From Cupriavidus sp. EM10 (GTDB lineage: Bacteria; Pseudomonadota; Gammaproteobacteria; Burkholderiales; Burkholderiaceae): 64,000 nt of DNA. Within the stretch, counting starts at the first letter, position 1, and each line of letters starts with the position of its first letter. A program made the position numbers and the translations under genes. Below, piece after piece: positions 5,305 through 26,411 of this stretch. The notes below the pieces were generated by a model. The model saw nothing but the letters and a program-made list of their open reading frames with translations. It had not been told where the DNA came from and ran no database searches. The stretch spans positions 2,108,001 through 2,172,000 of the forward strand of contig NZ_CP076061.1 in NCBI RefSeq assembly GCF_018729255.1, read 5' to 3'.

Positions 5305-5820
5305 TCAGGCCAGCGCGCCGTCGGTGTACACGTCGAAGCTGCGCGACGGTTCGGACGACACGCCCGTGCGGTCCAGGCCGGCGACGGTGCGGGCACCATC
5401 GGTGTACGGGTCGAACTTGCCGACCTTGGCGCCGTCGGTGAACGGGTCGGCCTTGCCGACGCGGGCACCATCGGTGTAGGCATCACGATTGCCGATGCTT
5501 GCAACAAGGCCGTCACGGTTCGTCACGCGGGCACCGTCGGTGTAGACGCTGCGGGTGCCGATGGTGGCCACCAGGCCGTCACGGTTGGTCACACGTGCAC
5601 CTTCGGTGTAGACATCGCGGCTGCCGATGCGGGCGCCTTCGCTGAAGGAATCGAACTTGCCTTGGCGGGCGCCATCGGTAAAGGCGCTGCGTTGGTCTTG
5701 TACGCGATAGCTGTAACCGTAGACTTCGCCGGTCTTCTGGGCGGCGGGGGCGGCCTGGACAGCGCCAGTCACGAATGCGGCGGCGAGGGCGGCGGCGGTA
5801 ACGATGGTCTTGGCGTTCAT
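5305..5820 (-). CDS. Secreted YTDGAR-repeat protein
   Basis: 171 residues with a clear Sec signal peptide (MNAKTIVTAAALAAAFVTGAVQA, cleavage likely near residue 23). The mature part is eight copies of a short motif, x[YF][TS][DE]GA[RK], at spacings of roughly 12-22 residues, often followed by a G/N-x-[RKF]-D segment; examples are VYTDGARVTNRDG and PFTDGAKVGKFD. There is no recognisable enzyme domain and no cysteine in the mature part. AAGGAG lies 7 bases before the ATG. A shorter paralogue lies at 26109-26411. Function unknown; a periplasmic or surface structural or binding role is a guess. It is first in the set leading to the TetR gene and has operator-like palindromes upstream. Confidence 0.85.
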   Translation of the reverse strand: MNAKTIVTAAALAAAFVTGAVQAAPAAQKTGEVYGYSYRVQDQRSAFTDGARQGKFDSFSEGARIGSRDVYTEGARVTNRDGLVATIGTRSVYTDGARVTNRDGLVASIGNRDAYTDGARVGKADPFTDGAKVGKFDPYTDGARTVAGLDRTGVSSEPSRSFDVYTDGALA

Positions 5821-5912
5821 GATGCTCTCCTTTGCAAGGCCGGCGATCTCGGTTCGTGTGGGGATCGCTGGCCGATGTCTGTGCTACGAATCAGGGCCTT
5901 TTCTGCGCGTTG

Positions 5913-5930
5913 CTATCTACTGCTAGATAG
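5913..5930. promoter_or_regulatory. Operator-like palindrome CTATCTA-N4-TAGATAG
   Basis: Perfect inverted repeat CTATCTA ctgc TAGATAG, 93 bases upstream of the YTDGAR-repeat gene. Size and symmetry fit a TetR-family operator. The local TetR protein (4469-5074) is the natural candidate binder. Confidence 0.55.
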
Positions 5931-6045
5931 ACACTTGGTGCTAAAAAAGACCGCTTCCGGTACTGACAAACAACCTTGTAATGCTTTGGATTCTGCTGCG
6001 CTGCTGGTTTCGCTTGCTGCGTTGCGTCGTCCATGGCTCGAATGT

Positions 6046-6061
6046 TATCTACTACTAGATA
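6046..6061. promoter_or_regulatory. Second operator-like palindrome TATCTA-N4-TAGATA
   Basis: Perfect inverted repeat TATCTA ctac TAGATA, the same core as the site at 5913-5930 and 133 bases from it. Two copies of one core in a non-coding stretch make chance less likely. The stretch 5821-6154 holds these two sites and otherwise no gene that I can support. Confidence 0.5.
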
Positions 6062-6154
6062 GATAAGCAAGGGAAATTTGGAGAAATTGCGATGCGATAG
6101 GTGGAGTGGCTACTCTAATGAGCGGGGCTGCTCATCGTAATTTATTGAATTTAA

Positions 6155-6194
6155 AGAAAAAAGCGGCGATGCCCCGAGCCGGGAACATCGCCGC
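6155..6194 (-). terminator. Terminator of the FAH/VOC transcript
   Basis: On the minus strand GCGGCGATG/CATCGCCGC form a 9-bp stem (6163-6171 with 6186-6194) followed by a T-rich run (6155-6162). It lies 24 bases after the FAH gene stop. Confidence 0.75.
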
Positions 6195-6217
6195 CTTGGC
6201 AGTGCAGGAAACGCGCT

Positions 6218-6913
6218 TTAGCGCTTGCCGATCGCAAAAGCGATCTCGCCGACACCTTCCACGCCAGCTGTCACGGCGTCGCCCGGGTTCAGCGCACCCA
6301 CGCCAGCCGGGGTGCCGGTGAAGATCAGGTCGCCCGGCTGCAGCGTCATGGCTTCGGAGATATACGAGATGACATCGGCCACGGGCCAGATCAGCTCGGT
6401 CAGGTCGCCTTCCTGGCGCGTTTCGCCGTTGACCTTGAGCCAAATGGCGCCCTTCGACGGATGGCCGATCGACGAAGCCGGCTGCAGCGGACCGCACGGG
6501 CCCGACGCGTCGAAGGACTTCGACCAGTCCCAGGGGCGGCTCATCTTCTTGGCCACGTCCTGCAGGTCGCGGCGGGTCAGGTCGACACCGACCCCGTAGC
6601 CCCACACCAGATCCAGCGCCTGCTCGGGCTTGACGTTGGCGCCAGCCTTGCCGATGGCCACCACCAGTTCGATCTCGTGATGCAGGTTCTCGGTCATCGG
6701 CGGATACGGCACCGTGCCTTCGGCCGCCACCACGGCGTCAGCCGGCTTGGTGAAGAAGAACGGCGGCTCGCGGTCGGGGTCCTTGCCCATCTCGCGGGCA
6801 TGCGCGGCGTAGTTGCGGCCCACGCAGAACACGCGGCGGATCGGAAAACGGGCCTCGCTGCCGGCCACCGCCACGCTGGGCTGCGGCGCCGGTTGGATCA
6901 CGAAATCGGTCAT
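6218..6913 (-). CDS. Fumarylacetoacetate hydrolase family protein, fumarylpyruvate hydrolase-like
   Basis: 231 residues, the short FAH form typical of fumarylpyruvate or acylpyruvate hydrolases of the gentisate/NagK type. The metal site is visible: NLHHEIELVVAIG (E-x-E) and the later GYGVGVDLTRRDLQ aspartate. RVFCVGRNYAAHA and FTGTPAGVGALNPGD are also family signatures. It hydrolyses a C-C bond in a ring-cleavage product. It lies 42 bases downstream of the VOC gene on the same strand, and the LysR gene is divergent, which suggests a small aromatic-acid catabolic unit. No gentisate dioxygenase is in view, so the substrate is an inference. Confidence 0.88.
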   Translation of the reverse strand: MTDFVIQPAPQPSVAVAGSEARFPIRRVFCVGRNYAAHAREMGKDPDREPPFFFTKPADAVVAAEGTVPYPPMTENLHHEIELVVAIGKAGANVKPEQALDLVWGYGVGVDLTRRDLQDVAKKMSRPWDWSKSFDASGPCGPLQPASSIGHPSKGAIWLKVNGETRQEGDLTELIWPVADVISYISEAMTLQPGDLIFTGTPAGVGALNPGDAVTAGVEGVGEIAFAIGKR

Positions 6914-6955
6914 GTCTCGCTCTGTCTCTATATAAGTAGGGGAATTCTTCGGTGA

Positions 6956-7378
6956 TTACTTCGCAAACACCTGGCTCATGTCGCCAAACGCCTTGAACTC
7001 GAGCGCGTTGCCCGACGGGTCCAGGAAGAACATCGTGGCCTGCTCGCCCACCTGGCCCTTGAAGCGCACGTGCGGCTCGATCACGAACTTCGTGCCGGCG
7101 CCGCGCAGCTTGTCGGCCAGGCGCTCCCATTCGGCCATCGGCAGGATGGCGCCGAAGTGGCGCACCGGCACGTCGTCGCCGTCCACGGCGCTGGTGGAGC
7201 GATGGCCGCACTCGTCCGGCGACAGGTGCGCCACCACCTGGTGGCCGTAGAAGTTGAAATCCACCCAGGCGTCGGAACTGCGGCCTTCGTCGCAGCCCAG
7301 CAGTTCGCCGTAGAACTGGCGTGCGGCGGCGAGATCGTGAACCGGAAAGGCAAGGTGGAACAGGGGGATGGCGCTCAT
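6956..7378 (-). CDS. VOC (glyoxalase/dioxygenase fold) protein
   Basis: 140 residues of the vicinal-oxygen-chelate fold: [24 protein letters not shown] at the N-terminus and [16 protein letters not shown] at the C-terminus. Likely metal ligands are the N-terminal histidine (FHLAF) and the C-terminal glutamate (LEF). The family includes extradiol dioxygenases and isomerases, so the reaction cannot be fixed. AGGAG lies 9 bases before the ATG. It precedes the FAH gene in the same transcript and is divergent from LysR. Confidence 0.85.
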
Positions 7379-7470
7379 GGCTGTGGCTCCTGTGACGGGC
7401 TGTTCTGGAATGTGTCGTTGATTGTAATCAGCAGAACTCGTAATATGAAACGAATCATTTTTGCCTAAGT

Positions 7471-7485
7471 ATCGAAAGTTTCGAT
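7471..7485. promoter_or_regulatory. Perfect palindrome ATCGAAA-G-TTTCGAT
   Basis: A 15-base inverted repeat just before the preferred LysR start at 7488, in the divergent region between the VOC and LysR genes. Possible operator or leader hairpin for LysR autoregulation. No experimental support can be read from sequence. Confidence 0.35.
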
Positions 7486-7487
7486 GC

Positions 7488-8366
7488 TTGAACCGCCCCT
7501 TGCTGCGCTATTTCAAGACCTTCCTGGTGGCTGCCGAGACCGGCTCCTTTTCTGCAGCAGGTGCCCGCCTGGGGCTGACACAGTCCGCCGTCAGCACCCA
7601 GATCCGGCGGCTGGAAGAGGACCTGGGCTGCACGCTGTTCGACCGGTCCGGCAAATCGGTGGCATTGAGCGACGAAGGCCGCCAGATGCTGGACGATGCC
7701 ACGCGCATCGTGGGCCTGTATGAGTCGATGAAAGGTGCGCGCGGGCAGCGCGACACGGCGCCGCTGGACCTGGGCGCCGTCTCCACCGTGCAATCGACGC
7801 TGCTGCCGCAGGCCATGCAGCGCTTCCGGGTGGCGCATCCCGATACCCACGTGAACATCGTGCCCGGCATGTCGACCCAGTTGCTGACCCAGGTGGACGC
7901 CCGCGAACTCGACATCGCCGTATTGGTAAGACCGCGCCTCGGCATTCCGCCAGAACTGAAATGGGTGCCGCTGATCCGCGAGCGATTCGTGGCCGTGGCG
8001 CCGCCCGAGGGGCCGGACAACCTGAAGGCGTTGCTGGAGACCGTGCCGTTTATCCGCTACAACCGCCATTCCACGGGCGGGCAACTGGTGGATCGCTACC
8101 TGCGGCGGCACCGGCTGTGGGTGCGCGAGGGCATGGAACTGGACGAGCCTGCCGTGATCCTGCAGATGGTGAGCGAGGGGCTGGGCTGCGCGATCATTCC
8201 GTCGGCGCTGGTGCCGCTGCGGCAGACGCCCAACATCAAGGAAGTGCTGATGCCGGGTCAGCCGCTGTATCGGGAGATCGGGGTACTGGTGCGGCAGTCG
8301 GCGCTCAAGCGTGCACCGGCTGCCGCGCTGATCGACGCGTTCGTGGCGGTCAGCCACGAACGCTGA
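7488..8366 (+). CDS. LysR-family transcriptional regulator
   Basis: About 292 residues with the winged helix-turn-helix [29 protein letters not shown] at the N-terminus and a PBP2-like effector domain. It is divergent from the VOC-FAH pair and so probably activates it (family knowledge plus position). No ATG precedes the conserved start. I choose TTG at 7488 ([13 protein letters not shown]), with a further TTG at 7461 as the alternative. It converges with the MFS gene, leaving only 12 bases between stops. Confidence 0.88.
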
Positions 8367-8378
8367 GGGATAGGAAGG

Positions 8379-9677
8379 TCAGGCCCGGGCCGGTTGCGGC
8401 GACGCCTCGGGCGCCTTGCGCCGCACCATCAGCGCCAGCAGCGCGGCCAGCAGGCAGGCGCTTCCCGCCACGTAGAGCGCCGGCGAATACGTCAGCCACA
8501 GCGTGCGCGACAGCCCGGCGCCAAAGGCCGCCGTGGCCGCGCCGATCTGGTGTGCGGCGAAGATCCATCCAAAGACCATCGGGGCCCGTTCGCGGCCAAA
8601 GGTGCTGCCGGCCAGCTTGATCGTCGGCGGCACGGTGGCAATCCAGTCCAGGCCATAGAACATGGCGAACACGGACAGGCCGTAGAGCGTGAATTCCGAA
8701 TGCGGCAGCCAGAACAGCGACAGCCCGCGCAGCGCGTAGTACCAGAACAGCAGCTTGCGGCTGTCGTAGCGGTCCGAGAGCCAGCCCGACATGATGGTGC
8801 CGACGAAGTCGAAAGCGCCCATCATGGCCAGCGCCGACGCCGCGGGCACGGCCGACATGCCGAAATCCGCGCACAGGGCGATGAAGTGCGTCTGGATCAG
8901 GCCGTTGGTCGACAGGCCGCAGATAAAGAACGTGCCGGCCAGTATCCAGAACGTCTGCGTACGGGCCGCGTCGCGCAGCACCACGAAAGGACCGGCCCAC
9001 GACATTGGCACGGGCGCGGCGGGCGCAGCGGCAACCGCCGACGGCACTTCGCCATAGGGCGCCAGGCCCACGTCGGAAGGGCGGGCCCGCAGGAAGCCAA
9101 ACACCACCACCGCCAGCGCGCCGCACGCGGCCAGCACCGGCAATACCGCCACGCGCCATCCCATATGCTCGATCAGCCAGGCGGCCACCGGCAGGAACGC
9201 CAACTGCCCGGTGGCCGAACTGGCGGTCAGCACGCCGATGACCAGCCCGCGCCGCGCCGTGAACCAGCGGTTGGCCACCAGCGCCGCCAGCACCATGGCC
9301 GTCAGCCCGGAGCCAACGCCGAGCATCAACCCCCATGCAAGGAACAACTGCCAGATTTCCGTGGACACCGTGGCCAGCGCCATGCCGCCCGCGATCAACG
9401 CCAGAGCAGCGCACACCACGTTACGGACGCCAAAACGTTCCATCAGGATTGCCGAGAACGGCGCCATCAGGCCGAACAGCGCGAAGCGGAAGGCCAGGAT
9501 CGACGATACCTGGTCGGTGCTCCAGCCCATCTCGGTGGTCAGCGGTTTCAGGAATGCGCCGGGCAGACCCAGCGCGGCGGAAGTGGTCAGCATCACGCAG
9601 AAGGTGATGGCGGCGACGATCCACGCGTAGTGGATGCCGCGCCGGTCCAGCCGGCTCGATAGGGCTTGCGCGAACAT
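8379..9677 (-). CDS. MFS transporter
   Basis: 432 residues with about 12 hydrophobic segments and the MFS pattern of two six-helix halves. The loop between the halves (near residues 205-235) is hydrophilic. It resembles the monocarboxylate/oxalate-formate antiporter-like MFS group (YAWIVAAITFCVMLTTSAALGLPGAF near the start), but the substrate is unknown. The ATG at 9677 has GGAG 4 bases upstream. A longer frame to 9917 overlaps the TetR gene and is rejected. It lies downstream of the TetR gene on the same strand. Confidence 0.9.
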   Translation of the reverse strand: MFAQALSSRLDRRGIHYAWIVAAITFCVMLTTSAALGLPGAFLKPLTTEMGWSTDQVSSILAFRFALFGLMAPFSAILMERFGVRNVVCAALALIAGGMALATVSTEIWQLFLAWGLMLGVGSGLTAMVLAALVANRWFTARRGLVIGVLTASSATGQLAFLPVAAWLIEHMGWRVAVLPVLAACGALAVVVFGFLRARPSDVGLAPYGEVPSAVAAAPAAPVPMSWAGPFVVLRDAARTQTFWILAGTFFICGLSTNGLIQTHFIALCADFGMSAVPAASALAMMGAFDFVGTIMSGWLSDRYDSRKLLFWYYALRGLSLFWLPHSEFTLYGLSVFAMFYGLDWIATVPPTIKLAGSTFGRERAPMVFGWIFAAHQIGAATAAFGAGLSRTLWLTYSPALYVAGSACLLAALLALMVRRKAPEASPQPARA

Positions 9678-9739
9678 GGGGCTCCGTTGGGGGGCGTTTT
9701 GGGTTGGGATTACAGGGAAATCGGGACGTACGGGGCGAG

Positions 9740-10339
9740 TCAGGCCGAAGGGGCTTCTTCGGTGTTCAGCAGCCAGTCGCGCGCCGCGTCGAGGATCTCG
9801 TCGGAAATGGCATCGCCAGCCGTGGCGCGCGCCAGCGTGATGGCGCCGACCAGCGTGGCCATTTCGACCAGAGCCGTGGGGTTGCCGGCGTCTTCGTCCA
9901 CGCAGACGCGCTTCCACGCGGTCAGCAGCTGCTTGATGCCGTCCAGGTAGGCGCTGCGCACGGGCTTGCCGGCCGGTTCGCGTGCCACGTCGCCGCCCAG
10001 CGCCGACGCCGGGCAGCCATGCTCCGGTGTATCCCGATGCCCTTCGCTGAGGTAATGCTCGACAAGATGGCGGCGCGCGGTCTGCCGATCGCCGCCAACC
10101 TGGGCGATCCGCTGGTCCCAGCGCGCGGCGGAATCGGAGAAGGCCCGGGCGCAGCCGGCGGCGGCCAGTTCGTCCTTTGACGAAAAGTGCCCATAGAAGC
10201 CGCCATGGGTCAGCCCGGCATCGGCCATGACTTGCGCCACCGACACCCCATGCAGGCCGTGCACCCGAAACAGTCGGGCCGACGCCTCCTCGATGGCTGT
10301 CCTATGCTGGTCGGCGACTGCCCGTGATGCGCGTGCCAT
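9740..10339 (-). CDS. TetR-family transcriptional regulator
   Basis: 199 residues. The helix-turn-helix GVSVAQVMADAGLTHGGFYGHFSSKDEL is typical of the TetR/AcrR group that includes many controllers of short-chain dehydrogenases and efflux genes. AAGGGG lies 6 bases before ATG 10339. The longer frame to 10432 adds a region without family character. It is divergent from the SDR gene at 10513, which is its most likely target, and it precedes the MFS gene on the same strand. Confidence 0.9.
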   Translation of the reverse strand: MARASRAVADQHRTAIEEASARLFRVHGLHGVSVAQVMADAGLTHGGFYGHFSSKDELAAAGCARAFSDSAARWDQRIAQVGGDRQTARRHLVEHYLSEGHRDTPEHGCPASALGGDVAREPAGKPVRSAYLDGIKQLLTAWKRVCVDEDAGNPTALVEMATLVGAITLARATAGDAISDEILDAARDWLLNTEEAPSA

Positions 10340-10512
10340 GTCGAACCCCTTGTTCAAGTCTGCAAAAAATCGGCTTGACCGGAGTTTAGATGATGTCCAT
10401 ACTTTATTCAATAGATGTTGGCCGTCATGCAAAAGAACATGACGGCCTGTGATTGAAACGTTGTAACCCTGAAACGTTGTAACCCGTTCCTCACCCCATA
10501 GGAGAACCTGTC

Positions 10513-11277
10513 ATGTTCAAACTGTTCGATATGTCTGGCCGCGTCGCGGTCGTTACCGGCTCCACCAAGGGCATGGGCCTGGAAATGGCGCGTGCCCTGG
10601 GCCAGGCCGGCGCCCGCGTGGTGGTGTCGGGCCGCGATGCCGCGGTGTCCGACAAGGTCGCGGCCGGCTTGCGCGAGCAGGGCATCGATGCCACCGGCAT
10701 TGCCTGCGACATCGTCAGCATCGACAGCGTGCGCGCCTTTGCCGAACAGGTGCTGGCCAGGTTTGGCCGCGTGGACGCCCTGGTGCTGAACGCGGCCGGC
10801 AGCACGGCGGTGGGTTCGATGCTGGCGCAGGGGCCGGAAGCGTTCGACGAGGTGATGGCCGGCAACGTGCGCGGCAACCTGGTGCTGGTGAACGCGCTGG
10901 CCCCGCAGATGATCGAGCGCAGGGACGGTTCGATCATCTTCATGTCGAGCATCGCGGCGCGACGCGGCTCCGCCATGCTGGCGCTGTACAGCATCTCGAA
11001 GGGCGCCACCGACCTGGCCATGCGCAACCTGGCGCAGACGCTGGGCCAGTACAACATCAACGTCAACAGCATCAACCCGGGCCCGGTGCGCACCGATTTC
11101 TCGCGCGACGCGCTGTGGGGCGACCCGGAACGCGAGAAGGCGCTGTCGGCCAATATCCCGATGCGCCGCATCGCCGAGGCCAGCGACGTGGCCGGCCTGG
11201 CGGTGCTGCTAGCATCGCCGGCGGGCCGCTATATCTCGGGCCAGACCATTGGCCTGGACGGCGGCGCCACCGCGTAA
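10513..11277 (+). CDS. Short-chain dehydrogenase/reductase (SDR)
   Basis: Classical SDR of 254 residues. The NAD(P)-binding motif is TGSTKGMG (residues 15-22). The NAG-like motif is LNAAGS. The catalytic serine lies in MSSIAA and the pair is YSISK. The C-terminal SGQTIGLDGGATA is also typical. It oxidises or reduces an alcohol/carbonyl; substrate not predictable. AGGAG lies 8 bases before the ATG. It is divergent from TetR and followed by a strong terminator, so it is probably monocistronic. Confidence 0.92.
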   Translation: MFKLFDMSGRVAVVTGSTKGMGLEMARALGQAGARVVVSGRDAAVSDKVAAGLREQGIDATGIACDIVSIDSVRAFAEQVLARFGRVDALVLNAAGSTAVGSMLAQGPEAFDEVMAGNVRGNLVLVNALAPQMIERRDGSIIFMSSIAARRGSAMLALYSISKGATDLAMRNLAQTLGQYNINVNSINPGPVRTDFSRDALWGDPEREKALSANIPMRRIAEASDVAGLAVLLASPAGRYISGQTIGLDGGATA

Positions 11278-11303
11278 ATCGGCGCCATCCGGCATCGCCA
11301 CAG

Positions 11304-11349
11304 CGCGCGGCCGGCTGCACGAACCGTGCAGTCGGACCGCGCGTTTTTT
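11304..11349 (+). terminator. Rho-independent terminator after the SDR gene
   Basis: Long interrupted stem CGCGCGG-CTGCAC / GTGCAG-CCGCGCG followed by six T residues (11344-11349). Confidence 0.85.
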
Positions 11350-11493
11350 GTGCGCGCGGCACTAACGTTGTGCGCAAATCGCACTGCATTTGTGCGGCAT
11401 CAAAAAGCACGTGAAATAGCGTGAAAAATGGCTTTATTCCTATGAATTGACGCCGTTACAGCGGGCAGTGAGACCCTTGAAACTAGGACGATC

Positions 11494-13436
11494 GTGACCG
11501 CATTCCTGACCCCCGCCACCCGGTTGATGTCCCGCCTGACCATCACGCGCAAGCTGGTGCTGCTGTCCGTGCTGTTCCTGATCCCGCTGTGCGGGGCCCT
11601 GTTCGCGGTGCTGAACCAGTCGGTGCAATCGATCCGCGATACCCGGGACGAATTGCGCGGCCTGAAGCTTGTCAACATCGCGCTGGATTTCATGCGCGAG
11701 ACGCAGGTCCGCCGTGGCGCGGCCAACGGCGTGCTGCTCGGCAATGCCAGCTCCGGCCGACCTTCGATGCCGCCGATGGCAAGGCCGCGCAGCACCTGGC
11801 CGCGCTGCAAGGCGAGGGCAGCGCCATCGAATCGTTCGCCATTGGGTCCGATGTGCAGAAGCTGGACGAAGCGTGGCAGCAGATTCGCAAGCTCGGGCTG
11901 GACACGCCCGCCGCGCCGCTGTTCGAGCGGCATACGGCGCTGGTCCGGCAGACGCGGCTATTTATCGGCGACGTGGCCGATCATTCGTCGCTGGCGCTCG
12001 ATCCCCAGGCCGCCTCGTACTACCTGATCAACCTGACGGTGGGCGCCATGCCAAAGCTGGCCGAAGTCAGCGCGCTGGCGCGCGGGCGGGGCGCCGGCAT
12101 CATCGCGCAGGGCGGCTATTCCGACGCCGCTCAGCAGGCCGACCTGGCCGCGCTGGCCGACCAGATCCTGGACGGGCTGGAATCGGCCCGCCGCGACATG
12201 GCGCGCGTGGAACGCGCTGCGCCGCAGTATCACGACCGTATCGAAGCGTCGACGAAGCAGCTCGCGGCCGTCGACAACTTCTACCGCACGCTCAAGGTCA
12301 GCATGCTGGGATCGGCCGGCATCACGATCGACGCCAAGACCTACTTTGCCGAGGGCACCGCCGCGATCGAAGCCGTGTCGGCGGTCAGCCGGGAGTTCAC
12401 GGCGCTGGCGGGCGCCATGCTGGGGCAGCGCGTGGCCGCCGAGCAGCGCAAGCTGGCCGTGCTGGCAGCCATCGCGCTGCTGACAGTGGGCGGCGCGCTG
12501 TACCTGTTCGCCGGCTTCAGCCGTGGCATGCGCGACGACGTGCGCGACGTCGCCGGCCTGGTGGCGCGGATCAACGATGGCGACCTGGGCGTGCAGATCG
12601 AAGCGAGTGGGCGGGACGAGCTAAGCGACGTCAAGCGCCATCTGATGACGCTGGTGCAGGCGTGGCGCGGCATCATCGGCGATACGCGCGACAGCGCTCA
12701 GAACGTGCTGGTGGCGGCCGGGCAGATCGCGCAGGGCAACGCCGACCTGTCGCAGCGCACCGAGGCGCAGGCGTCGTCGCTGGAGCAGACGGCGGCCAGC
12801 ATGGAGGAGCTGACGTCGATCGTGCAGCAGAACGCCGGCAACGCCAGCCAGGCCAGCGCGCTGGCCGCCGAAGCCGCGGGCATCGCCGTGGCGGGCGGCG
12901 AATCGGTGGGGCGCATGCGCCAGACCATGAGCGAAATCGAGGCCGATTCGCGCCGTATCGTCGACATCATCGCCGTGATCGACAGCATCGCGTTCCAGAC
13001 CAACATCCTGGCGCTCAATGCCGCCGTGGAAGCCGCGCGCGCTGGCGAGGCGGGGCGGGGCTTCGCGGTGGTGGCGGGCGAGGTGCGCACGCTGGCCCAG
13101 CGCGCCGCCAGCTCGGCCAAGGAGATCCGCACGGTGATTTCGCAGTCGGCGGGCCGCGTGGCCGATGGCACGGCGCTGGCCGTCGACACCGCGACCACCA
13201 TGACCGAGGTGGTGACAGCGGTGCAGCGCGTGACGACGATGATGGACGAGATCAGCCGCGCGTCGCACGAGCAGAGCGGCGGCATCGCGCAGGTGAACCA
13301 GGCGGTGACGCAGATGGACCAGGTCACGCAGCAGAACGCCGCGCTGGTGGAAGAAGCCGCTGCGGCCGCCCGGGCGCTGCAGGAGCAGGCCGAGCGGATG
13401 GAGCAGACCGTCAGCGTGTTCCGGCTGGCGGCCTAG
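11494..13436 (+). pseudogene. Methyl-accepting chemotaxis protein, frameshifted near 11757
   Basis: Membrane chemoreceptor. Frame 1 (from GTG 11494, AGGA 6 bases upstream) gives the first membrane helix ([21 protein letters not shown]) and ends its sense near [11 protein letters not shown]. The next frame continues with [16 protein letters not shown], a periplasmic domain, a second membrane helix ([21 protein letters not shown]), HAMP and the signalling tip ([22 protein letters not shown]). One base is missing near 11757-11762; adding a C to the CC run restores a ~647-residue receptor. The rest is intact, so a sequence error is more likely than gene decay. No CheB/CheR-binding pentapeptide ends the protein. 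It stands alone, without other che genes nearby. Confidence 0.85.
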
Positions 13437-19035: not shown

Positions 19036-19785
19036 ATGCTCTCTACCCAGTTCGTCAGCCGTGTGACCCTGCTGCGGGACAAAGTGCCCGATTTCGACCG
19101 CTATCCGTTCGGCCTGCCGGCGGTACGGAGCCTCGACCATATCGAACTGCACCCCCAGGTGACCTTCTTCGTGGGCGAAAACGGATCAGGTAAGTCGACG
19201 TTGCTGGAAGCCATCGCGGTGGCGCTGGGCTTCAATGCCGAAGGGGGTAGCAAAAACTTCAGCTTTTCGACGCGTGCTTCGCATTCCGACCTCCACGAAT
19301 ACCTGCGTATCGCCAAGGGCGTGCGCCGGCCGCGCAGCGGGTATTTTCTGCGGGCGGAGAGCTTTTTCAATGTGGCGACTGAGATTGAACGGCTTGATGA
19401 GGAACCGGGGTTTGGCCCGCCCGTGATCGAATCCTACGGCGGCAGGTCGCTGCACGAGCAGTCGCACGGCGAGGCGTTCCTCACCCTGTTGACCGAGCGG
19501 TTCCAGGGGCAGGGCCTTTATATCCTCGACGAACCCGAGGCGGCGTTGTCGCCGGCCCGGCAGCTTGCGGTGATCTCGCGGCTGCACGATCTGGTGCGCG
19601 ACGGGTCGCAGTTCCTGATTGCCACCCATTCGCCAATCCTGATGGCGTATCCCGATGCGTGGATCTATCAATGCTCGGCGAGCGGCGTGGAGCGAATCGG
19701 CTACGAGGAAACCGAGCACTACCAGATAACGCGCGATTTCCTGGTAGACCCGCAACGCATGCTGCGGGTCCTGATGGAGGATTGA
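19036..19785 (+). CDS. ABC/AAA-type ATPase, stand-alone
   Basis: 249 residues: Walker A GENGSGKST (near 51-59), a signature-like SHGEAFL, Walker B LYILDEPEAALSP and the switch histidine ATHSPIL. This is the predicted-ATPase group related to RecF/SMC-like heads (COG3910 by recollection). There is no transmembrane partner and no coiled-coil insert, so it is not a classic transporter or SMC. The ATG at 19036 lacks a clear ribosome-binding site. The open frame extends far upstream through the neighbours and is rejected there. It is divergent from the HicA-like pair; a functional link is not shown. Confidence 0.85.
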   Translation: MLSTQFVSRVTLLRDKVPDFDRYPFGLPAVRSLDHIELHPQVTFFVGENGSGKSTLLEAIAVALGFNAEGGSKNFSFSTRASHSDLHEYLRIAKGVRRPRSGYFLRAESFFNVATEIERLDEEPGFGPPVIESYGGRSLHEQSHGEAFLTLLTERFQGQGLYILDEPEAALSPARQLAVISRLHDLVRDGSQFLIATHSPILMAYPDAWIYQCSASGVERIGYEETEHYQITRDFLVDPQRMLRVLMED

Positions 19786-19800
19786 CGGGCTACGCGCCCG

Positions 19801-21327
19801 TCAGGCAGCCAGCGGTTCGTTGGCCGGCTTGCCGCCTTCGGTCAGCATGGTGCCGTGCTCACGGTAGTGGGTGTGCCAGGCGAACGCCTCTTCGAGGACG
19901 TGGGGCGTCTGGCCGCCGCGCAGGCAGGCGCGGCGGTAGTAGTCCAGCAGGCCGTCGCGATACGTCGGGTCGGTGCAGTTGTTGATGACCTGCAGCGCGC
20001 GTTCGCGGGGCGCCAGGCCGCGCAGGTCGGCCAGGCCATGTTCCGTGACCAGGATATCCACGTCGTGCTCGCTGTTGTCGACGTGCGTCACCATCGGCAC
20101 GATGCTGGAGATCCTGCCTTCCTTGGCCACCGACTTCGTGACGAAGACCGACAGGTATGCGTTGCGCGCGAAATCGCCCGAGCCGCCGATGCCGTTCATC
20201 ATGTGCGTGCCGCCCACGTGCGTGGAGTTGACGTTGCCGTAGATGTCGCATTCCAGCGCCGTGTTGATGGTGATCAGGCCCAGCCGGCGCAGCACCTCGG
20301 GGTGGTTGCTGATCTCCTGCGGGCGCAGCACCAGCTTGCGCTTGTAGTGCTCGATGTCGTCCAGCACGCGGCGATAGACCGGCGCCGACAGCGTCATCGA
20401 CGCCGCCGACGCAAAGCGCATCTTGCCGGCATCGATCAGCGCGATGGTGCTGTCCTGCAGCACCTCGGAGTACATCGTCAGGTCATGGAATGGCGAATCG
20501 GCCAGGCCGTGCAGCACGGCATTGGCGATGGTGCCGATGCCGGCCTGCAGCGGCTGCAGCGTGGGCGACAGGCGGCCGGCGCGCACTTCGCGTTCCAGCA
20601 GGGCGTTCAGGTGGCCGGCGATCTGGTTGGTCTCGGCGTCGGGGGGCAGCGCGTTCGACGGGCTGTCGTCGCGCTGCGTGATGACGATGGCCGCGATGCG
20701 CGACGGGTCCACGGGGATGTAGGGCAGGCCGATGCGCTGCTCCACGGCGATCAGCGGAATCGGCTGGCGATACGGCCGCTGCACCGGGAAGGCGATGTCG
20801 TGCAGGCCTTCCAGCCCGCCAGGCATGTTCAGGTTCAGTTCGATGATGATCGTCTTCGCCATCTTGGCGAAGCTGGCCGAGTTGCCGACCGACGTGGTGG
20901 GGACGATGCCGCCCGTCTCGGTGATGGCGGCGGCCTCGATGACCGCGACATCGACCGGGCCGATCTGGCCGCTGCGCAGCATCTCGGCGGTCTCGCCCAG
21001 ATGCTGGTCGATGAACATGACGTCGCCACTATTGATCTTGCGGCGCAGCGTGGCATCGGACTGGAACGGCAGGCGGCGCGCCAGCACGTTGCTTTCAGCC
21101 AGGAGCTTGTCGGTATCGTGTCCCAGCGAGGCGCCGGTGATCAGGGTGATCTGGAGCGGATCGGTGGCGGCGCGGCGGGCCAGCGCCAGGGGAACGGCCT
21201 TGCAGTCGCCGGCGCGCGTGAAGCCGCTCATGCCGACGGTCATGCCGTCCCGGATCAGGCTTGCGGCTTCATCGGCCGACATGATCCTGTCCTGGAGGGC
21301 GGCCAGGCGAATGCGATCGCGGTACAT
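19801..21327 (-). CDS. Acetyl-CoA hydrolase/CoA-transferase family (succinate:acetate CoA-transferase type)
   Basis: 508 residues, full length for the family that moves CoA between succinyl-CoA or propionyl-CoA and acetate or succinate. The catalytic glutamate is expected in TALECDIYGNVNSTHVGGT. Conserved DGMTVGMSGFTRAGD and GIGGSGDFARNAYLSVFV are present. Cytoplasmic. AAGGAG lies 5 bases before the ATG. It converges with the ATPase and has a long leader upstream. It is not part of an aromatic cluster here, so a role in acetate/propionate metabolism is inferred from family only. Confidence 0.92.
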   Translation of the reverse strand: MYRDRIRLAALQDRIMSADEAASLIRDGMTVGMSGFTRAGDCKAVPLALARRAATDPLQITLITGASLGHDTDKLLAESNVLARRLPFQSDATLRRKINSGDVMFIDQHLGETAEMLRSGQIGPVDVAVIEAAAITETGGIVPTTSVGNSASFAKMAKTIIIELNLNMPGGLEGLHDIAFPVQRPYRQPIPLIAVEQRIGLPYIPVDPSRIAAIVITQRDDSPSNALPPDAETNQIAGHLNALLEREVRAGRLSPTLQPLQAGIGTIANAVLHGLADSPFHDLTMYSEVLQDSTIALIDAGKMRFASAASMTLSAPVYRRVLDDIEHYKRKLVLRPQEISNHPEVLRRLGLITINTALECDIYGNVNSTHVGGTHMMNGIGGSGDFARNAYLSVFVTKSVAKEGRISSIVPMVTHVDNSEHDVDILVTEHGLADLRGLAPRERALQVINNCTDPTYRDGLLDYYRRACLRGGQTPHVLEEAFAWHTHYREHGTMLTEGGKPANEPLAA

Positions 21328-21755
21328 CTAGTCTCCTTGCTGGGGGCTGTCTGGTCTGCCGCCAGGGGCCTCGTGGGTCCGTGACGGACGTTGCGTCTTG
21401 GAGGCGCGAAGCACAGTGTAGCCAGCGCTTAATATTCTCACCATGATTTATAGCTCTGATAACCAGTCGGTTTTTTCATAGTCATGAAGCTGGCACGCCA
21501 ATGTCGTAGCGTGCGGCAAGGAGGTTGCGGCCAGAACCATACATAAAGGCGCGCTGGCGCTTCGTGATCCCGCGCAAGGATGGTGCGGGCCGACACCGTT
21601 GCGTCCTTGCCAATCTCCGTCTGTGATTCCGCGCTGGCGGGACTACTATCGTTTCCAGCAAGGCCGGCAAGCCGGCCGGGCAGTCTTCGCAGTCTTCGAT
21701 CGATGCATCACGCGCCGGCGTGTGGCCGGCCGCTTCACAGCAACGGGGGAAAAGC
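21328..21755. other. Gene-free divergent upstream region
   Basis: A 428-base stretch between the CoA-transferase and the flavoprotein, transcribed apart. It contains AT-richer patches around 21430-21480 that may hold promoters, and a GGCCGGC-aa-GCCGGCC hairpin near 21662-21678. I see no protein-coding or RNA gene I can support. Confidence 0.4.
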
Positions 21756-23510
21756 ATGGAGATGACCCAGGCGACGTCGGAAATCGACGCCAATCCTGAT
21801 ACCGATGACGCGCAGGCGGCCCAGCCTACGCTGACCGAGCTCGAGGCGCCGTTCTCGAACCTGGAAACGCGTCGGCACCAGATGTTTCCGACGCTGACGC
21901 ATGCGGAAATCGACCGCATCCGGCGGTTCGGCCATGTCCAGACATGGAAGGCTGGCGAACTCGTCTTCGAGGTTGGCGATGCGGGACGCGGCATGCATGT
22001 GGTGCTGAGCGGGCGTGTGCGGATCGACCGGCGCGACGGCTTTGGCCATCGCACCGCGATAACCGAGGAAGGCCCCGGGCAATTCCTGGCGGAGGTCGGC
22101 CAGTTGACCGGCAAGCCGGCGCTGGTCGATGCCGTGGCGCTGGAAGATGTGACGATCCTGGTGGTGCCGCCGCCAAGCCTGCGCGCGCTGCTGATTGCCG
22201 AAGCCGACCTGGGCGAGCGCATCATGCGGGCGCTGATCCTGCGCCGCGTGGGGCTGATCGAGCAGGGCGGCGGGCCGGTGCTGGTGGGCAAAGGCACGGA
22301 GCCGCTGCTGCTGTCGCTGCAGGCGTTCCTGCGCCGCAATGGCCATCCGCACCGCGTGATCGATATCGAGACCGACACCGATTCCACCTGCCTGCTCGAT
22401 ATCAGCAAGGCCCCGCAGAGCGATTTCCCGATGGTGATCTGCCCCGACGGCAGCGTACTGCGCGCCCCGGACGAAGGCCAGCTTGCCAGTTGCCTGGGGC
22501 TGGTGCCCGAATTCGATCCGGGCCATGTCTATGACGTGATCGTGGTCGGCGCAGGGCCGGCCGGGCTGGCCACGGCGGTCTACGCGGCGTCCGAAGGGCT
22601 GTCGGTGGCCGTGCTCGACTGCCGGTCGCCGGGCGGGCAGGCCGGTGCCAGCGCGCGGATCGAGAACTACCTGGGCTTCCCGACCGGCATCTCTGGCCAG
22701 GCGCTGGCCGGCCGGGCTTTCGTGCAGGCGCTCAAGTTCGGCGCGCACGTGGCCATTCCGCTGGAAGCCAAGGCGCTGCATTGTGGAGAAAATCCGATCG
22801 AGCTGGAACTGGCCGACGGGCGCCGCGTGCCCACGCGCACGGTGGTGATCGCCAGCGGCGCGCAATACCGGCGCGCCGAGATCGACGCGCTGGATCGCTA
22901 CGAAGGGCGCGGCGTCTACTACTGGGCGTCGCCGGTGGAAGCCAAGCTGTGCAAGGACGAGCACGCGATGCTGGTGGGCGGCGGCAACTCGGCTGGCCAG
23001 GCGGCCGTGTACCTGGCATCGCACGCGGCCGAGGTGCATATGCTGGTGCGCGGCGAAGGGCTTGAGGCCACCATGTCGCGCTACCTGATCGACCGCATCC
23101 GGGGCCTGTCGAACGTGCATCTGCACACCCACTCGCAGATCACGGCGATGGAGGGCGAGGGCTGGCTGTCCACGGTGCGCTACAAGGAACGCGCGCAGGG
23201 GCCGGAGTGCATCGCCGTACCGATGCGCCACGTGTTCCTGTTCATCGGCGCGGCGCCCAATACCGAATGGCTGCGCTCGTGCCACGTGGAAACCGACGCC
23301 AAGGGCTTCATCCTGACCGGCTACGAAGCGCATCACTCCTGCACCGAACGCGCCGACTACACGCTGGAAACCAGCGTGCCTGGCGTTTTTGCGATTGGCG
23401 ATGTGCGGTCCGGGTCGACCAAGCGCGTGGCGGCGGCAGTGGGCGAGGGCGCGGCAGTGGTGGCGCAGATCCACCACTACCTGGCCACGCTGGAACAGGC
23501 GCGCGTGTAA
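21756..23510 (+). CDS. Cyclic-nucleotide-binding domain fused to thioredoxin-reductase-like flavoprotein, CxxC absent
   Basis: 584 residues. Residues ~45-170 form a cNMP-binding/Crp-like domain (GELVFEVGDAGRGMHVVLSGRV). After a thioredoxin-like linker (~180-245) comes a TrxR-type fold: FAD motif VGAGPAGLATAVYAASEGL, GGQAGASARIENYLGFP, NADPH motif MLVGGGNSAGQAAVYLAS and the C-terminal FAIGDVRSGS. The redox pair CATC of true thioredoxin reductases is replaced (GVYYWASPVEAKLC), so it cannot act as a standard TrxR. It may be a flavin sensor or reductase of another substrate, gated by a nucleotide (inference). ATG 21756 follows GGGGGA. Confidence 0.9.
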   Translation: MEMTQATSEIDANPDTDDAQAAQPTLTELEAPFSNLETRRHQMFPTLTHAEIDRIRRFGHVQTWKAGELVFEVGDAGRGMHVVLSGRVRIDRRDGFGHRTAITEEGPGQFLAEVGQLTGKPALVDAVALEDVTILVVPPPSLRALLIAEADLGERIMRALILRRVGLIEQGGGPVLVGKGTEPLLLSLQAFLRRNGHPHRVIDIETDTDSTCLLDISKAPQSDFPMVICPDGSVLRAPDEGQLASCLGLVPEFDPGHVYDVIVVGAGPAGLATAVYAASEGLSVAVLDCRSPGGQAGASARIENYLGFPTGISGQALAGRAFVQALKFGAHVAIPLEAKALHCGENPIELELADGRRVPTRTVVIASGAQYRRAEIDALDRYEGRGVYYWASPVEAKLCKDEHAMLVGGGNSAGQAAVYLASHAAEVHMLVRGEGLEATMSRYLIDRIRGLSNVHLHTHSQITAMEGEGWLSTVRYKERAQGPECIAVPMRHVFLFIGAAPNTEWLRSCHVETDAKGFILTGYEAHHSCTERADYTLETSVPGVFAIGDVRSGSTKRVAAAVGEGAAVVAQIHHYLATLEQARV

Positions 23511-23673
23511 CTGGATTCGTGAGTTACGGGCACCAATGTCTTTCTGAACGCGATATCCCTGCGCTTTGTTTCATGGGTACACTGCCTGCGCGTGTCCGGG
23601 GAACGTCCCCGGATTCCGGCGCAACAGGTATTCGACCGGGCCCAAGCCCGGCGTCCCAACCAGGAGACAAACC

Positions 23674-24675
23674 ATGGGTATCCCCTTTGCCAACCTGGCC
23701 AGGCTGGCCGGGCGTGCGGGCATCGTCGTCGCCGCGATGGCTGCCGCGCTTGCCGCCGCGCCTTCGCTGGCCGCCGACAGCTTTCCCAATCGTCCGATCC
23801 GCCTGATCGTGCCGTTCGCGCCCGGCGGCAGTGTCGACATTGCCGGGCGGCTCATCACCGATGCCTGGGGCAAGCAGCTGGGCCAGCCGGTGGTGGCGGA
23901 CAACCGCGCCGGCGCATCGGGCAATATCGGCATGGACCAACTGGCCAAGGCGAAGCCCGACGGCTACACACTGGCCATCAACAACGTGGCGCTGGCCGTC
24001 AACCCGTCGCTGTTCGCCAAACTGCCTTTCGATACCGCGAAGGATTTCGCGTCGGTGGGCACCATGGGCACGTCGCAGCATGTGCTGGTGGTCACCAACA
24101 CGCTGCCCGCGAAGAACGTCAAGGAACTGGTGGCGATGGCCAAGGCGCAGCCGGGCAAGCTGAGTTTTGGTTCGGCCGGGGCGGGCAGCACCTTCCATAT
24201 GGCCGCCGAACTGTTCAAGACCGAATCGGGCGCCGATATCCTGCACGTGCCTTACAAGGGCGGCGGCCCGGCCCTGGTCGACACGATCGCGGGACAGGTG
24301 CAGATGAGCTTCCCGGTGCTGTCCGCTGCGCTGCCGCAGGTGCAGGCGGGCAAGCTGCGCGCGCTGGCCGTGACCGGGCCGAAGCGCTCGCCGCTGATGC
24401 CAGACGTGCCGACCATGGCCGAGGCCGGCCTGCCGCACTACGCGTTCGAGACGTGGTTTATCGTCAGCGCCCCCGCCGGTACGCCGAAGGACGTGCTGGC
24501 GAAGCTGAACCAGACGCTCAACGCGGCGCTGGCCCAGCCCGAACTGAAGGCGCGGCTGCTCAAGGAAGGCTTCGAGCCGCTGACGATGAGCCCGGCCCAG
24601 GCCGATACCATGCTGCGCAAGGAAATGGTCCGCTGGGCAGCACAGATCAAGCAGGCCGGGATCACCCCCGAATAG
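23674..24675 (+). CDS. Bug/TctC-family periplasmic solute-binding protein
   Basis: 333 residues with a Sec signal peptide (cleavage likely after SLAA near residue 32) and the tripartite-tricarboxylate receptor pattern FPNRPIRLIVPFAPGGSVDIAGR, followed by NRAGASGNIGMDQLAKAKPDGYTL and HVPYKGGGPAL. It binds a carboxylate in the periplasm. Many Bug proteins, like this one, have no TctA/TctB partner nearby. AGGAG lies 7 bases before the ATG. Confidence 0.93.
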   Translation: MGIPFANLARLAGRAGIVVAAMAAALAAAPSLAADSFPNRPIRLIVPFAPGGSVDIAGRLITDAWGKQLGQPVVADNRAGASGNIGMDQLAKAKPDGYTLAINNVALAVNPSLFAKLPFDTAKDFASVGTMGTSQHVLVVTNTLPAKNVKELVAMAKAQPGKLSFGSAGAGSTFHMAAELFKTESGADILHVPYKGGGPALVDTIAGQVQMSFPVLSAALPQVQAGKLRALAVTGPKRSPLMPDVPTMAEAGLPHYAFETWFIVSAPAGTPKDVLAKLNQTLNAALAQPELKARLLKEGFEPLTMSPAQADTMLRKEMVRWAAQIKQAGITPE

Positions 24676-24690
24676 GCTCCCTTTCCCCTT

Positions 24691-25668
24691 TCAGGCCGCC
24701 ATCGCCGGTTCCGGCGCGCCGCCGGCCGGCACCGCGTACATCAGCGGGGCCGCGCCGGCCTGGATGCGCGCCCGCTGCGCCTCGGTTGTCATCTCCTCCA
24801 GCAGCTTGCAGAAGCGCGGTTCGAACATGCCGGACACGATGTACGTCCAGCGATACGCCTTGAGAATCACGGCCTCCACTTCGGGCGCATGCGGGGCGTC
24901 CTGCGCGCCACGAATCACGCGCATGAAGTAGCCCGCATCGGCATGGGCCTGCGCCTGGACGACCGCGTCGAAGCCGCCCACGATGGCCAGCATGTCGTCG
25001 ATGGCCGCATCGCGCTCGGCGTCGCTCACCCGGGCGTTCTCGCGGATCCATTCCAGCTCGTCCAGGATCGCGTGCTGCGATTCCTCGCGCCAGTGGTACA
25101 GGAACACGTCCTTGAACAGTTCGGACAGGTCCGACGCCGTGCCGATGCTGGCGCGATAGTGCGCCTGCGAGAACAGCTCCAGCTGGCAGATCACGGCCAA
25201 CACGGCCCACGTGCGCTTGCCCAGTACGAAAGCGGCCACGTCGTTGGGCTGGGCGCCGAAGTGGTAGCCGTCGGGCATGTCCTGGCCGGCCAGCCGCTCG
25301 ATGCGGCGAAACAGTTCCTGGTGCTTCAGTTCCTCGTCGGAAAAGCGGATCAGCGCCTCCAGCGCGACCTGGTCGCCCAGCGCGTGCTGCCCGGTCAACT
25401 CCAGCACCTTGGCGCTGACAAAGCGTTCCACCAGCCCGAACATGTTGGCGTAGGTACGGCCTTGCACCTGACTCAGGAAGCGCTGCTCCGATGCGCTAAG
25501 GAAGGGCAGTTCGTCGACGAGCGACAGGCCGTCGGGCATGAACTTGTGCGAAAGGTCGAACGTGCGGCCGCGAATCACGTCCTGGTCGATGTCCCAGCGG
25601 ATGCGGCGTGAAGCGGCGATGCAGCGGGCGTAGCGTTGTGTGTCGGCGGAAAGGGATACAGCTTGCAT
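24691..25668 (-). CDS. Diiron ferritin-like protein (AurF-like oxygenase candidate)
   Basis: 325 residues, all-alpha. It carries iron-ligand patterns spaced as in ferritin-like diiron oxygenases: FVSAKVLELTG, FSDEELKHQELF (E-x-x-H), QLELFSQAHY and HWREESQHAILDELEW (E-x-x-H). Related proteins include AurF-like N-oxygenases and other diiron oxidases; the substrate cannot be told. AAGGAG lies 7 bases before ATG 25668. It converges with the Bug gene and is transcribed away from the second YTDGAR-repeat gene. Confidence 0.8.
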   Translation of the reverse strand: MQAVSLSADTQRYARCIAASRRIRWDIDQDVIRGRTFDLSHKFMPDGLSLVDELPFLSASEQRFLSQVQGRTYANMFGLVERFVSAKVLELTGQHALGDQVALEALIRFSDEELKHQELFRRIERLAGQDMPDGYHFGAQPNDVAAFVLGKRTWAVLAVICQLELFSQAHYRASIGTASDLSELFKDVFLYHWREESQHAILDELEWIRENARVSDAERDAAIDDMLAIVGGFDAVVQAQAHADAGYFMRVIRGAQDAPHAPEVEAVILKAYRWTYIVSGMFEPRFCKLLEEMTTEAQRARIQAGAAPLMYAVPAGGAPEPAMAA

Positions 25669-26108
25669 TGCGAAACTCCTTGATACGTGAAATCCGTCCC
25701 ATGGAGGACGTGGGCCGGATACTCGGACGTTTCGGGGGTGTCGCGCGTGAGGCCGGTGTCCCGGCTGCAATCGATTACATCGGATTCGGCCCAGGAATGC
25801 GGGACAGGCGTCCTTGGCGCGGGTTTACTCGGAGAACTACGATGGATCTAGCTGGAATGCCATGCTGCAAGCGGCTTCCGGGCATCCCCCGGCTATGACC
25901 GGCCCGGTCCTTTCCCCTGCACAGGACCGAAGTCCCACACATTTCCTGCGGGTTTTCCCGCGCTGGTGGCAAAACCCGGGACACCGGTCTCGTACGCCAA
26001 TGAAAACGATTTCCGACAATGACTCCACGGACCGGCCAAGGCCATCCCGGCCAGCGCCAGGTTCGTGTTTGTCTTCTGATTGGAGTTCAAAAAGTTGGAG
26101 TAGTCGAG
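25669..26108. other. Gene-free divergent upstream region
   Basis: A 440-base stretch between the diiron gene (minus) and the YTDGAR-repeat gene (plus). It holds a hairpin GGGTTTT-N14-AAAACCC (25950-25977). I recognise no promoter boxes or RNA gene with certainty. Confidence 0.35.
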
Positions 26109-26411
26109 ATGTGTACGAAAGTTGCAAAGACCCTGCTTGCCGTTTCAGCCGTTTCCGCATTGACCATCGGCATCGCCCAGACCGCCCACGCCGCGTGGAG
26201 CGAGGTATTCGTCCCGTCGAATGGATCGACGCAGCACGCGAGCAAGTCCTCGTGCCTGCGAGGCACCTTCGATCCGTATTCGGACGGCGCCCGAATGGGG
26301 CCGCGTGATGCCTTCAGCGATGGCGGCAACCGCATCGGGCCGCGCGACGCGTACACCGACGGTGCGCGCAGCGTCGGCGCCCAGGGGGACTGCGCGATGC
26401 GCGGGGCCTGA
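26109..26411 (+). CDS. Small secreted YTDGAR-repeat protein (second copy)
   Basis: 100 residues. Signal peptide MCTKVAKTLLAVSAVSALTI with AHA cleavage near residue 28. The mature part carries three repeat units, DPYSDGAR-MGPRD, AFSDGGN-RIGPRD and AYTDGAR-S. This is the same motif as the protein at 5305-5820 but with only three copies. Two cysteines (residues 49 and 95 approximately) flank the repeats and might form a disulfide in the periplasm. GGAG lies 8 bases before the ATG. Function unknown. Confidence 0.75.
   Translation: MCTKVAKTLLAVSAVSALTIGIAQTAHAAWSEVFVPSNGSTQHASKSSCLRGTFDPYSDGARMGPRDAFSDGGNRIGPRDAYTDGARSVGAQGDCAMRGA

What the first reader, a model, noticed from the sequence alone, without database searches (positions are those of the whole stretch)
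5305..26411. A family of secreted proteins built from YTDGAR repeats, two members in this window
Eight and three copies of x[YF][TS][DE]GA[RK] follow signal peptides in proteins at 5305-5820 and 26109-26411, with no other domain. I know of no described function. The conserved acidic/Arg core suggests a repeated binding or structural unit. The first member is encoded with a TetR gene and a tiny membrane peptide.
Basis: partly seen in the sequence, partly recalled or inferred. Interest (0 to 1): 0.7.

Follow-up and report, generated by a model that had tools for sequence, protein, structure and literature searches.

The report
CopQ-like secreted repeats under thiol-sensing repressor
The two repeat proteins belong to a known but poorly understood family of metal-stress proteins (CopQ-like) of Cupriavidus and a sister genus, and the first of them belongs to a small gene set that appears to be switched on by a repressor sensing thiol-attacking chemicals.

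Summary
In detail: 5305-5820 (-) and 26109-26411 (+) encode signal peptides followed by eight and three Y/F-T/S-D/E-G-A units. But the family is not undescribed. Both are CopQ-like proteins (RDXXTDG repeats, metal-induced; PrsQ1/PrsQ2 are needed for silver resistance of C. metallidurans NA4S). This genome carries 23 such loci; in the family and order samples only two genera have them.

What looks new is the regulation. The first member lies in a conserved unit: copQ, a 33-aa membrane peptide, a TetR repressor. All five perfect TATCTAnnnnTAGATA sites in the 6.66-Mb genome lie upstream of three copQ genes (reversed pattern: 0). Of 150 perfect sites in 44 Cupriavidus genomes I opened 83; all precede copQ genes. 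In CH34 the six sites precede mmsQ, mmsQ1 and probably mmtQ, CopQ genes that the 2010 genome paper found unlinked to any metal locus. The TetR has an invariant cysteine (80/80) aligned with bleach-sensing Cys106 of NemR. Its relatives stand beside an OsmC/Ohr gene in most Burkholderia-type loci and a DUF4148 repeat protein in Collimonas.

Best reading: thiol-reactive stress (Cd, Hg, Pb, oxidants) de-represses envelope-protecting repeat proteins. Binding, sensing and CopQ's biochemical role are inferred.

The parts
5305..5820 (-). copQ-like gene P0001, 171 aa: signal peptide, eight repeat units
   Evidence: Shine-Dalgarno-like AAAGGAGAG before the ATG read
5136..5237 (-). 33-aa one-pass membrane peptide gene (ATG start; listed from an upstream TTG)
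   Evidence: conserved in 18 of 18 Cupriavidus-type loci
4469..5074 (-). TetR-family repressor gene, 201 aa, Cys98 in the column of NemR Cys106
5914..5929 (.). proximal operator TATCTACTGCTAGATA, centre 101 bp from the copQ start
   Evidence: with the next site, 2 found in the window at up to 2 mismatches against 0.04 expected
6046..6061 (.). distal operator TATCTACTACTAGATA, centre 233 bp from the copQ start
4370..4389 (-). terminator-like hairpin after tetR, likely end of the unit
   Evidence: consensus match only; 5 found in 4340-6220 against 1.2 (sd 1.3) in shuffles
6160..6197 (-). terminator-like hairpin between the upstream FAA-hydrolase gene and the copQ control region
   Evidence: consensus match only
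26109..26411 (+). second CopQ-like gene P0002, 100 aa, three units, two flanking cysteines, no operator site

Best explanation
P0001 and P0002 are CopQ-like exported stress proteins. P0001 lies in a unit copQ - membrane peptide - tetR that corresponds to the mmsQ locus of C. metallidurans CH34. The TetR protein binds pairs of TATCTAnnnnTAGATA sites in front of this copQ (and so of its own gene) and, together with a second TetR copy, in front of two further copQ genes, and keeps them silent. Modification of its invariant Cys98 by thiol-reactive agents (soft metals such as Cd, Hg and Pb, and probably electrophiles or oxidants) releases it. The cell then exports small repeat proteins rich in Tyr/Phe, Asp and Arg that protect the envelope as flexible, low-specificity binders. 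Shown by sequence: family, signal peptide, gene unit, operator placement, cysteine conservation. Inferred: that this TetR binds these sites, that Cys98 is the sensor, the inducers, and what the repeats do.
For: Similarity to named CopQ proteins. Five perfect sites in the genome, all at three copQ loci; allowing one mismatch adds only two, one at the third copQ and one just in front of the second tetR; reversed pattern 0 (gene positions); 0.014 perfect sites expected from base composition. Genus: 150 perfect sites in 44 of 60 genomes (my sum) against 1 hit of the reversed pattern. 80 of the 150, all those of 23 genomes, were checked: 79 lie 40-263 bp upstream of a copQ start; the 80th was missed by my frame-length filter and is also upstream of copQ; three more sites in two other genomes also are. 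The 80 best TetR loci of 231: 18 of 18 Cupriavidus-type beside copQ, 7 of 7 Collimonas beside DUF4148, 42 of 55 Burkholderia-type beside OsmC/Ohr. Cys98 invariant in 80 of 80 TetRs; NemR Cys106 senses reactive chlorine (PMC7464077, passage). mmtQ is induced by Cd, Hg and Pb, not by Cu or Ni (PMC2864759, passage). A DUF4148 operon is among the most As(III)/Sb(III)-induced in Achromobacter (PMC11719878, passage).
Against: No binding or induction was measured. NemR's Lys175, the bonding partner of Cys106, is Arg in 80 of 80, so NemR's own switch cannot apply as such; identity to NemR is 24%. That mmtQ is the CH34 gene at 770,787 rests on interpolated locus numbers. The match to mmsQ rests on the neighbouring TetR (78% against 59% for the other CH34 copy); the P0001 protein itself has its best single alignment (73%) with the 770,787 gene. 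16 of 60 Cupriavidus genomes have no perfect site; the 4 of these 16 that I opened have one-mismatch sites in place. 20 of 23 CopQ-like loci here, P0002 included, lack perfect sites, and the second genus has CopQ without sites or a close TetR, so the circuit is not general to the family. 13 of 55 Burkholderia-type loci lack the OsmC gene. The charge-hydropathy test did not favour disorder. No structure could be predicted.
Confidence: 0.68

Rival explanations
1. The TetR senses an organic ligand (as many TetR_C_13 proteins may) rather than thiol chemistry, and the CopQ set answers solvent, phenolic or fatty-acid stress on the envelope; metal induction of the relatives is secondary.
For: Best curated family score is AcuR, an acrylate regulator, although far below its cut-off (44.5 against 247 bits); the esterase beside the TetR in 33 of 55 Burkholderia-type loci and the FAA hydrolase gene upstream of copQ suit organic substrates.
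Against: Cys98 is invariant in 80 of 80; an OsmC/Ohr gene is the commonest neighbour outside Cupriavidus (42 of 55); mmtQ, probably one of the set, responds to Cd, Hg and Pb.
Confidence: 0.2
2. CopQ proteins are plain periplasmic metal-ion buffers whose Asp/Glu/Tyr groups chelate metals; the TetR is just one of several regulators recruited to copies of the gene.
For: Published metal induction and the silver phenotype of prsQ1/prsQ2 mutants; 20 acidic residues in mature P0001.
Against: No Cys, His or Met in mature P0001 and equal numbers of basic residues, unlike the His/Met-rich Cu/Ag binders that I recall (SilE, CopK; not compared here).
Confidence: 0.2
3. The repeats are a surface or matrix component (adhesion, envelope cross-linking through tyrosines) and not a stress protectant.
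For: Tyr-rich, Cys-free modular repeats with variable unit number.
Against: The placement under a stress-type regulator, swapped with an OsmC/Ohr gene in relatives; published metal induction of relatives.
Confidence: 0.1

Closest known systems
CopQ-like proteins of Cupriavidus metallidurans (CopQ, CzcJ, MmrQ, MmmQ, MmtQ, MmsQ, PrsQ1, PrsQ2)
   Same: Signal peptide, repeated Asp-x-Tyr-Thr-Asp-Gly core, no other domain, genus-limited, many paralogues per genome.
   Different: P0001 is in a TetR-operator set of three and not in a metal-efflux cluster; strict RDXXTDG occurs once in each window protein.
MmsQ/MmsQ1 of CH34
   Same: CH34 genes at 1,570,798 and 2,348,832 encode 165-aa proteins differing at one residue, fitting 'almost identical paralog' in PMC2864759; same operator pair and, at the first, a TetR 78% identical to the window's.
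   Different: Number and order of units; the CH34 set has two near-identical copies.
NemR, E. coli TetR-family bleach and electrophile sensor
   Same: TetR_C_13 domain; shared CLxxxLSAEV stretch with Cys at the Cys106 column.
   Different: 24% identity; Lys175 is Arg, Cys21 not kept; no nemA or gloA seen next to it.
DUF4148 (PF13663) secreted repeat proteins
   Same: Small exported repeat proteins; in Collimonas they stand beside the orthologous TetR and operator.
   Different: Pfam DUF4148 does not match P0001, P0002 or 55 relatives.

Membership tests
CopQ-like proteins | Significant similarity to proteins named CopQ | tested here: met
   P0001: P0028 E=1.5e-46, P0032, P0034 and others named CopQ. 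P0002 is linked through its match to P0001 (E=2.6e-6); its own named hits are only 'hypothetical protein'.
CopQ-like proteins | RDXXTDG motif 3 to 4 times (PMC2864759) | tested here: inconclusive
   Strict motif once in each protein (read by eye); relaxed [YF][TS][DE]G[AG] 8 and 3 times.
CopQ-like proteins | Signal sequence | tested here: met
   Rule-based check only.
CopQ-like proteins | Restricted to Cupriavidus and Ralstonia | tested here: met
   Family sample: 22 of 22 same-genus and 16 of 16 of one other genus, 0 of 162 others; order sample: 0 of 396 outside the genus. The tool does not name the second genus; Ralstonia is inferred.
CopQ-like proteins | Metal-induced expression | not testable with these tools
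   Published for relatives only.
NemR | Sensor cysteine Cys106 | tested here: met
   Cys98, 80 of 80.
NemR | Lys175 partner of Cys106 | tested here: not met
   Arg in 80 of 80.
NemR | Cys21 and Cys116 | tested here: not met
   Ile18 and Leu108 in the window TetR; Cys21 column M, I or L in 80 of 80; Cys116 column no Cys among the residues printed (72 of 80).
AcuR (NF051457) | Score above the curated cut-off | tested here: not met
   44.5 against 247 bits.
DUF4148 (PF13663) | Pfam match | tested here: not met
   None at E <= 1 for P0001 and P0002, none at E <= 0.001 for 55 relatives.

The most novel reading that the evidence does not exclude
One thiol-sensing TetR repressor and its palindromic operator have been kept through evolution while their output was exchanged: an OsmC/Ohr peroxidase and esterase in Burkholderia relatives, a DUF4148 repeat protein in Collimonas, a set of CopQ repeat proteins in Cupriavidus. 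CopQ and DUF4148 repeats would then be functional equivalents: disordered, Tyr/Arg/Asp-spaced periplasmic proteins that act as sacrificial scavengers or condensate-forming holdases against thiol-reactive metal and oxidant damage.
Probability: 0.33. Interest if true: 0.75.

Novelty: new variant of a known kind. Interest (0 to 1): 0.55.

Why it matters
CopQ-like proteins are metal-induced products of the model metal-resistant genus, with about 20 copies per genome (21 stated for CH34; 23 loci here) and no assigned activity in the passages I read. The 2010 genome paper left mmtQ, mmsQ and mmsQ1 unlinked to any metal locus. A candidate repressor and operator give a direct test of what turns them on, and the exchange with an OsmC/Ohr gene in related genera points to what they protect against. 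[quoted passage not shown]

Tried and rejected
Without result: Pfam, NCBIfam and PADLOC for a known domain (one of 55 relatives gave a lone PBP5_C match at E=0.00091); solved structures by profile (one hit at E=0.46, taken as chance); structure prediction; sigma-70 promoter scan (0 found, 0.4 expected). Papers looked into without use for the argument: PMC6266692, PMC8963506, PMC7060636 (mmmQ called a small stress responsive protein), PMC10304115.

Considered and rejected: chance repeat; shadow ORF (homologues are conserved); EF-hand type calcium loop (position 3 is Tyr/Phe, by eye); anti-phage defence; filing the TetR as NemR. The charge-hydropathy test gave 0.431 against a boundary of 0.413 for P0001 and 0.423 for P0002, slightly on the folded side, so disorder is inference only. 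A strict motif for the small membrane peptide found it in 32 of 53 operator-type loci (counted by hand); it misses variants. The family-wide pattern search found a perfect site in 95 of 200 genomes; sites outside Cupriavidus in that listing were not opened, and in some genomes the reversed control also hits. Chr/megaplasmid records of CH34 and C. campinensis carry no gene table in that collection.
Full report
Observation. Window 5305-5820 (-) encodes a 171-aa protein (P0001) and 26109-26411 (+) a 100-aa protein (P0002), each with a signal peptide followed by repeats with the core Asp-x-Tyr/Phe-Thr/Ser-Asp/Glu-Gly-Ala. P0001 has eight units spaced 12, 12, 22, 22, 12, 12 and 26 residues apart; P0002 has three spaced 12 and 13. 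Shuffling each mature sequence 20,000 times never gave more than one unit.

Family. A search of 5.8 billion proteins gave 338 homologues of P0001 at E <= 0.01, of which 120 are listed; where the name given includes an organism it is Cupriavidus except for 'Burkholderiaceae bacterium 16' and a compost metagenome entry, and many are called copper resistance protein CopQ. CopQ-like proteins were described in 2010 as secreted proteins with a repeated RDXXTDG motif, metal-induced and restricted to Cupriavidus and Ralstonia (PMC2864759, passages read). 21 homologues are stated for CH34 (PMC7563307, passage). PrsQ1 and PrsQ2 are needed for the silver resistance of mutant NA4S (PMC7380067, passages). 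The distribution here agrees: 60 of 60 same-genus genomes; in the family sample 22 of 22 same-genus genomes, 16 of 16 of one other genus and 0 of 162 others; in the order sample 0 of 396 outside the genus. The second genus is not named by the tool; Ralstonia is inferred. This genome has 23 CopQ-like loci at E <= 0.0071, clustered by hand; 17 reading frames with two or more motifs were extracted from the first 30 matches.

The gene unit. Downstream of P0001 on the same strand lie a 33-aa membrane peptide (5136-5237) and a TetR-family gene (4469-5074). Among the 80 best TetR relatives kept from 231 in named genomes, the 18 Cupriavidus-type loci all have a copQ gene just upstream and the small peptide. 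59 of 60 Cupriavidus genomes have the TetR at E <= 1e-30, most with two copies. The second copy of this genome is at C2:511,934-512,491, again beside a copQ gene (L111). Terminator-like hairpins lie after tetR and before the control region (consensus matches only).

The operator. Two perfect palindromes TATCTAnnnnTAGATA lie 101 and 233 bp upstream of the P0001 start. The whole 6.66-Mb genome has five perfect sites, all upstream of three copQ genes: this one, C2:513 kb and C2:1048 kb. One mismatch adds two sites, one at the third copQ gene and one directly in front of the second tetR; the reversed pattern has none. Base composition predicts 0.014 perfect sites. In the genus 44 of 60 genomes have perfect sites, 150 in all by my sum, against one hit of the reversed pattern. 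The listing was cut after G029; I fetched every site of G000 and the 22 listed genomes, 80 sites at 50 loci (and the window). 79 lie 40-263 bp upstream of a copQ start as placed by a simple rule; the 80th was missed by my frame-length filter and is also upstream of a copQ gene. Three more sites in two other genomes are too; the remaining 67 were not opened. Of the 16 genomes without a perfect site I opened four, and all four have one-mismatch versions in the expected places. Of 30 site pairs, 28 are 115-147 bp apart.

Link to C. metallidurans CH34. Its six perfect sites precede three copQ genes at 770,787, 1,570,798 and 2,348,832. The last two encode 165-aa proteins differing at one residue, matching mmsQ (Rmet_4908) and its 'almost identical' paralogue mmsQ1 (Rmet_5594). 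By interpolating locus numbers (my arithmetic, in no call) Rmet_4187 (mmtQ) should lie near 750 kb; the nearest CopQ match is the one at 770,787, and the next are at 856,219 (E=2) and 458,534. PMC2864759 says that mmtQ, mmsQ and mmsQ1 appear unlinked to any heavy-metal locus, and that mmtQ is highly induced by Cd, Hg and Pb, moderately by Zn, not by Cu or Ni. The nearest TetR in CH34 adjoins the 1,570,798 gene (78% identical) and a second adjoins the 770,787 gene (59%), while the P0001 protein itself has its best single alignment with the 770,787 gene (73%). I therefore equate the window unit with the mmsQ locus on its regulator, not on the repeat protein.

The sensor. The TetR shares the TetR_C_13 domain with E. 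coli NemR, at 24% identity. Its Cys98 aligns with NemR Cys106 and is invariant in 80 of 80 sequences (79 of the 80 loci, L045 not extracted by my script, plus the window); the Lys175 column is Arg in 80 of 80; Cys21 is not kept in any, and no Cys is seen at Cys116 among the 72 of 80 residues printed. NemR Cys106 responds to reactive chlorine through a bond with Lys175 (PMC7464077, passage). The window protein may therefore work like a Cys-based sensor but is not NemR.

Outputs exchanged. Outside Cupriavidus the TetR relatives stand beside other genes. In 7 of 7 Collimonas loci it is a divergently transcribed protein like L050, which has three DUF4148 stretches. In 55 Burkholderia-type loci, 42 have an OsmC/Ohr-family gene (24 of them with an esterase), 9 the esterase alone, 4 neither. 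Somewhere in the fetched locus, 54 of the 80 have a perfect operator, 25 a one-mismatch one, and one, a Cupriavidus-type locus, only a four-mismatch one. A DUF4148 operon is among the most induced by As(III) and Sb(III) in Achromobacter (PMC11719878, passage). The second CopQ-bearing genus has no perfect site in 16 of 16 genomes and no close TetR (one hit in 16 at 32% identity), so the TetR circuit belongs to Cupriavidus and not to all CopQ proteins.

What the repeats may do. Mature P0001 has no Cys, His or Met, 20 acidic and 20 basic residues and 14 Tyr/Phe. Whole units are gained and lost between relatives, and operator-linked copies hold 4 to 12 motifs, which suits a modular chain better than one fixed fold; the charge-hydropathy test did not favour disorder. 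Soft-metal chelation is unlikely for P0001.

The second member. P0002 has no operator site in the window near it. In an alignment of P0002 with 12 of its 14 hits, two cysteines flanking the repeats are invariant. It is CopQ-like by its units but of a different branch and presumably controlled otherwise.

In print. Searches for CopQ with TetR and Cupriavidus, mmtQ/mmsQ names and locus tags, Cupriavidus with NemR, and TetR with OsmC terms listed no paper whose title, abstract start or passages seen describe this circuit. Only listings and passages were read, and most subscription papers are not held.

Noticed in passing
L049-L055 (e.g. L050:4011-4424): In 7 of 7 Collimonas loci the orthologous TetR lies divergently from a secreted DUF4148-type repeat protein, with operator-like sites between them.
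   Followed up: partly
L061:5733-7228 and most of L056-L110: In Burkholderia relatives the same TetR and operator lie beside an OsmC/Ohr-family gene, often followed by an Abhydrolase_3 esterase: a possible peroxide or thiol-stress unit.
   Followed up: partly
L112:1104-4661 (G000:C2 about 1044-1048 kb): The third operator-bearing copQ gene has no TetR of this type beside it; it lies near genes that look like an efflux pair (permease and HlyD-like, read by eye) and a different TetR-type gene.
   Followed up: no
5136-5237: The 33-aa membrane peptide also appears beside some copQ genes where no TetR of this type was seen in the fetched stretch (e.g. L186, L200); its role is unknown.
   Followed up: partly
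26109-26411: P0002 and the 12 relatives aligned keep two cysteines flanking the repeats, unlike Cys-free mature P0001.
   Followed up: partly
24691-25770: A protein encoded near P0002 has only a sub-threshold match to EncFtn-like ferritin (16.9 against 27 bits).
   Followed up: no
L113 (G000:C2 1167-1170 kb): Two CopQ-like genes lie within about 2 kb of each other on opposite strands.
   Followed up: no
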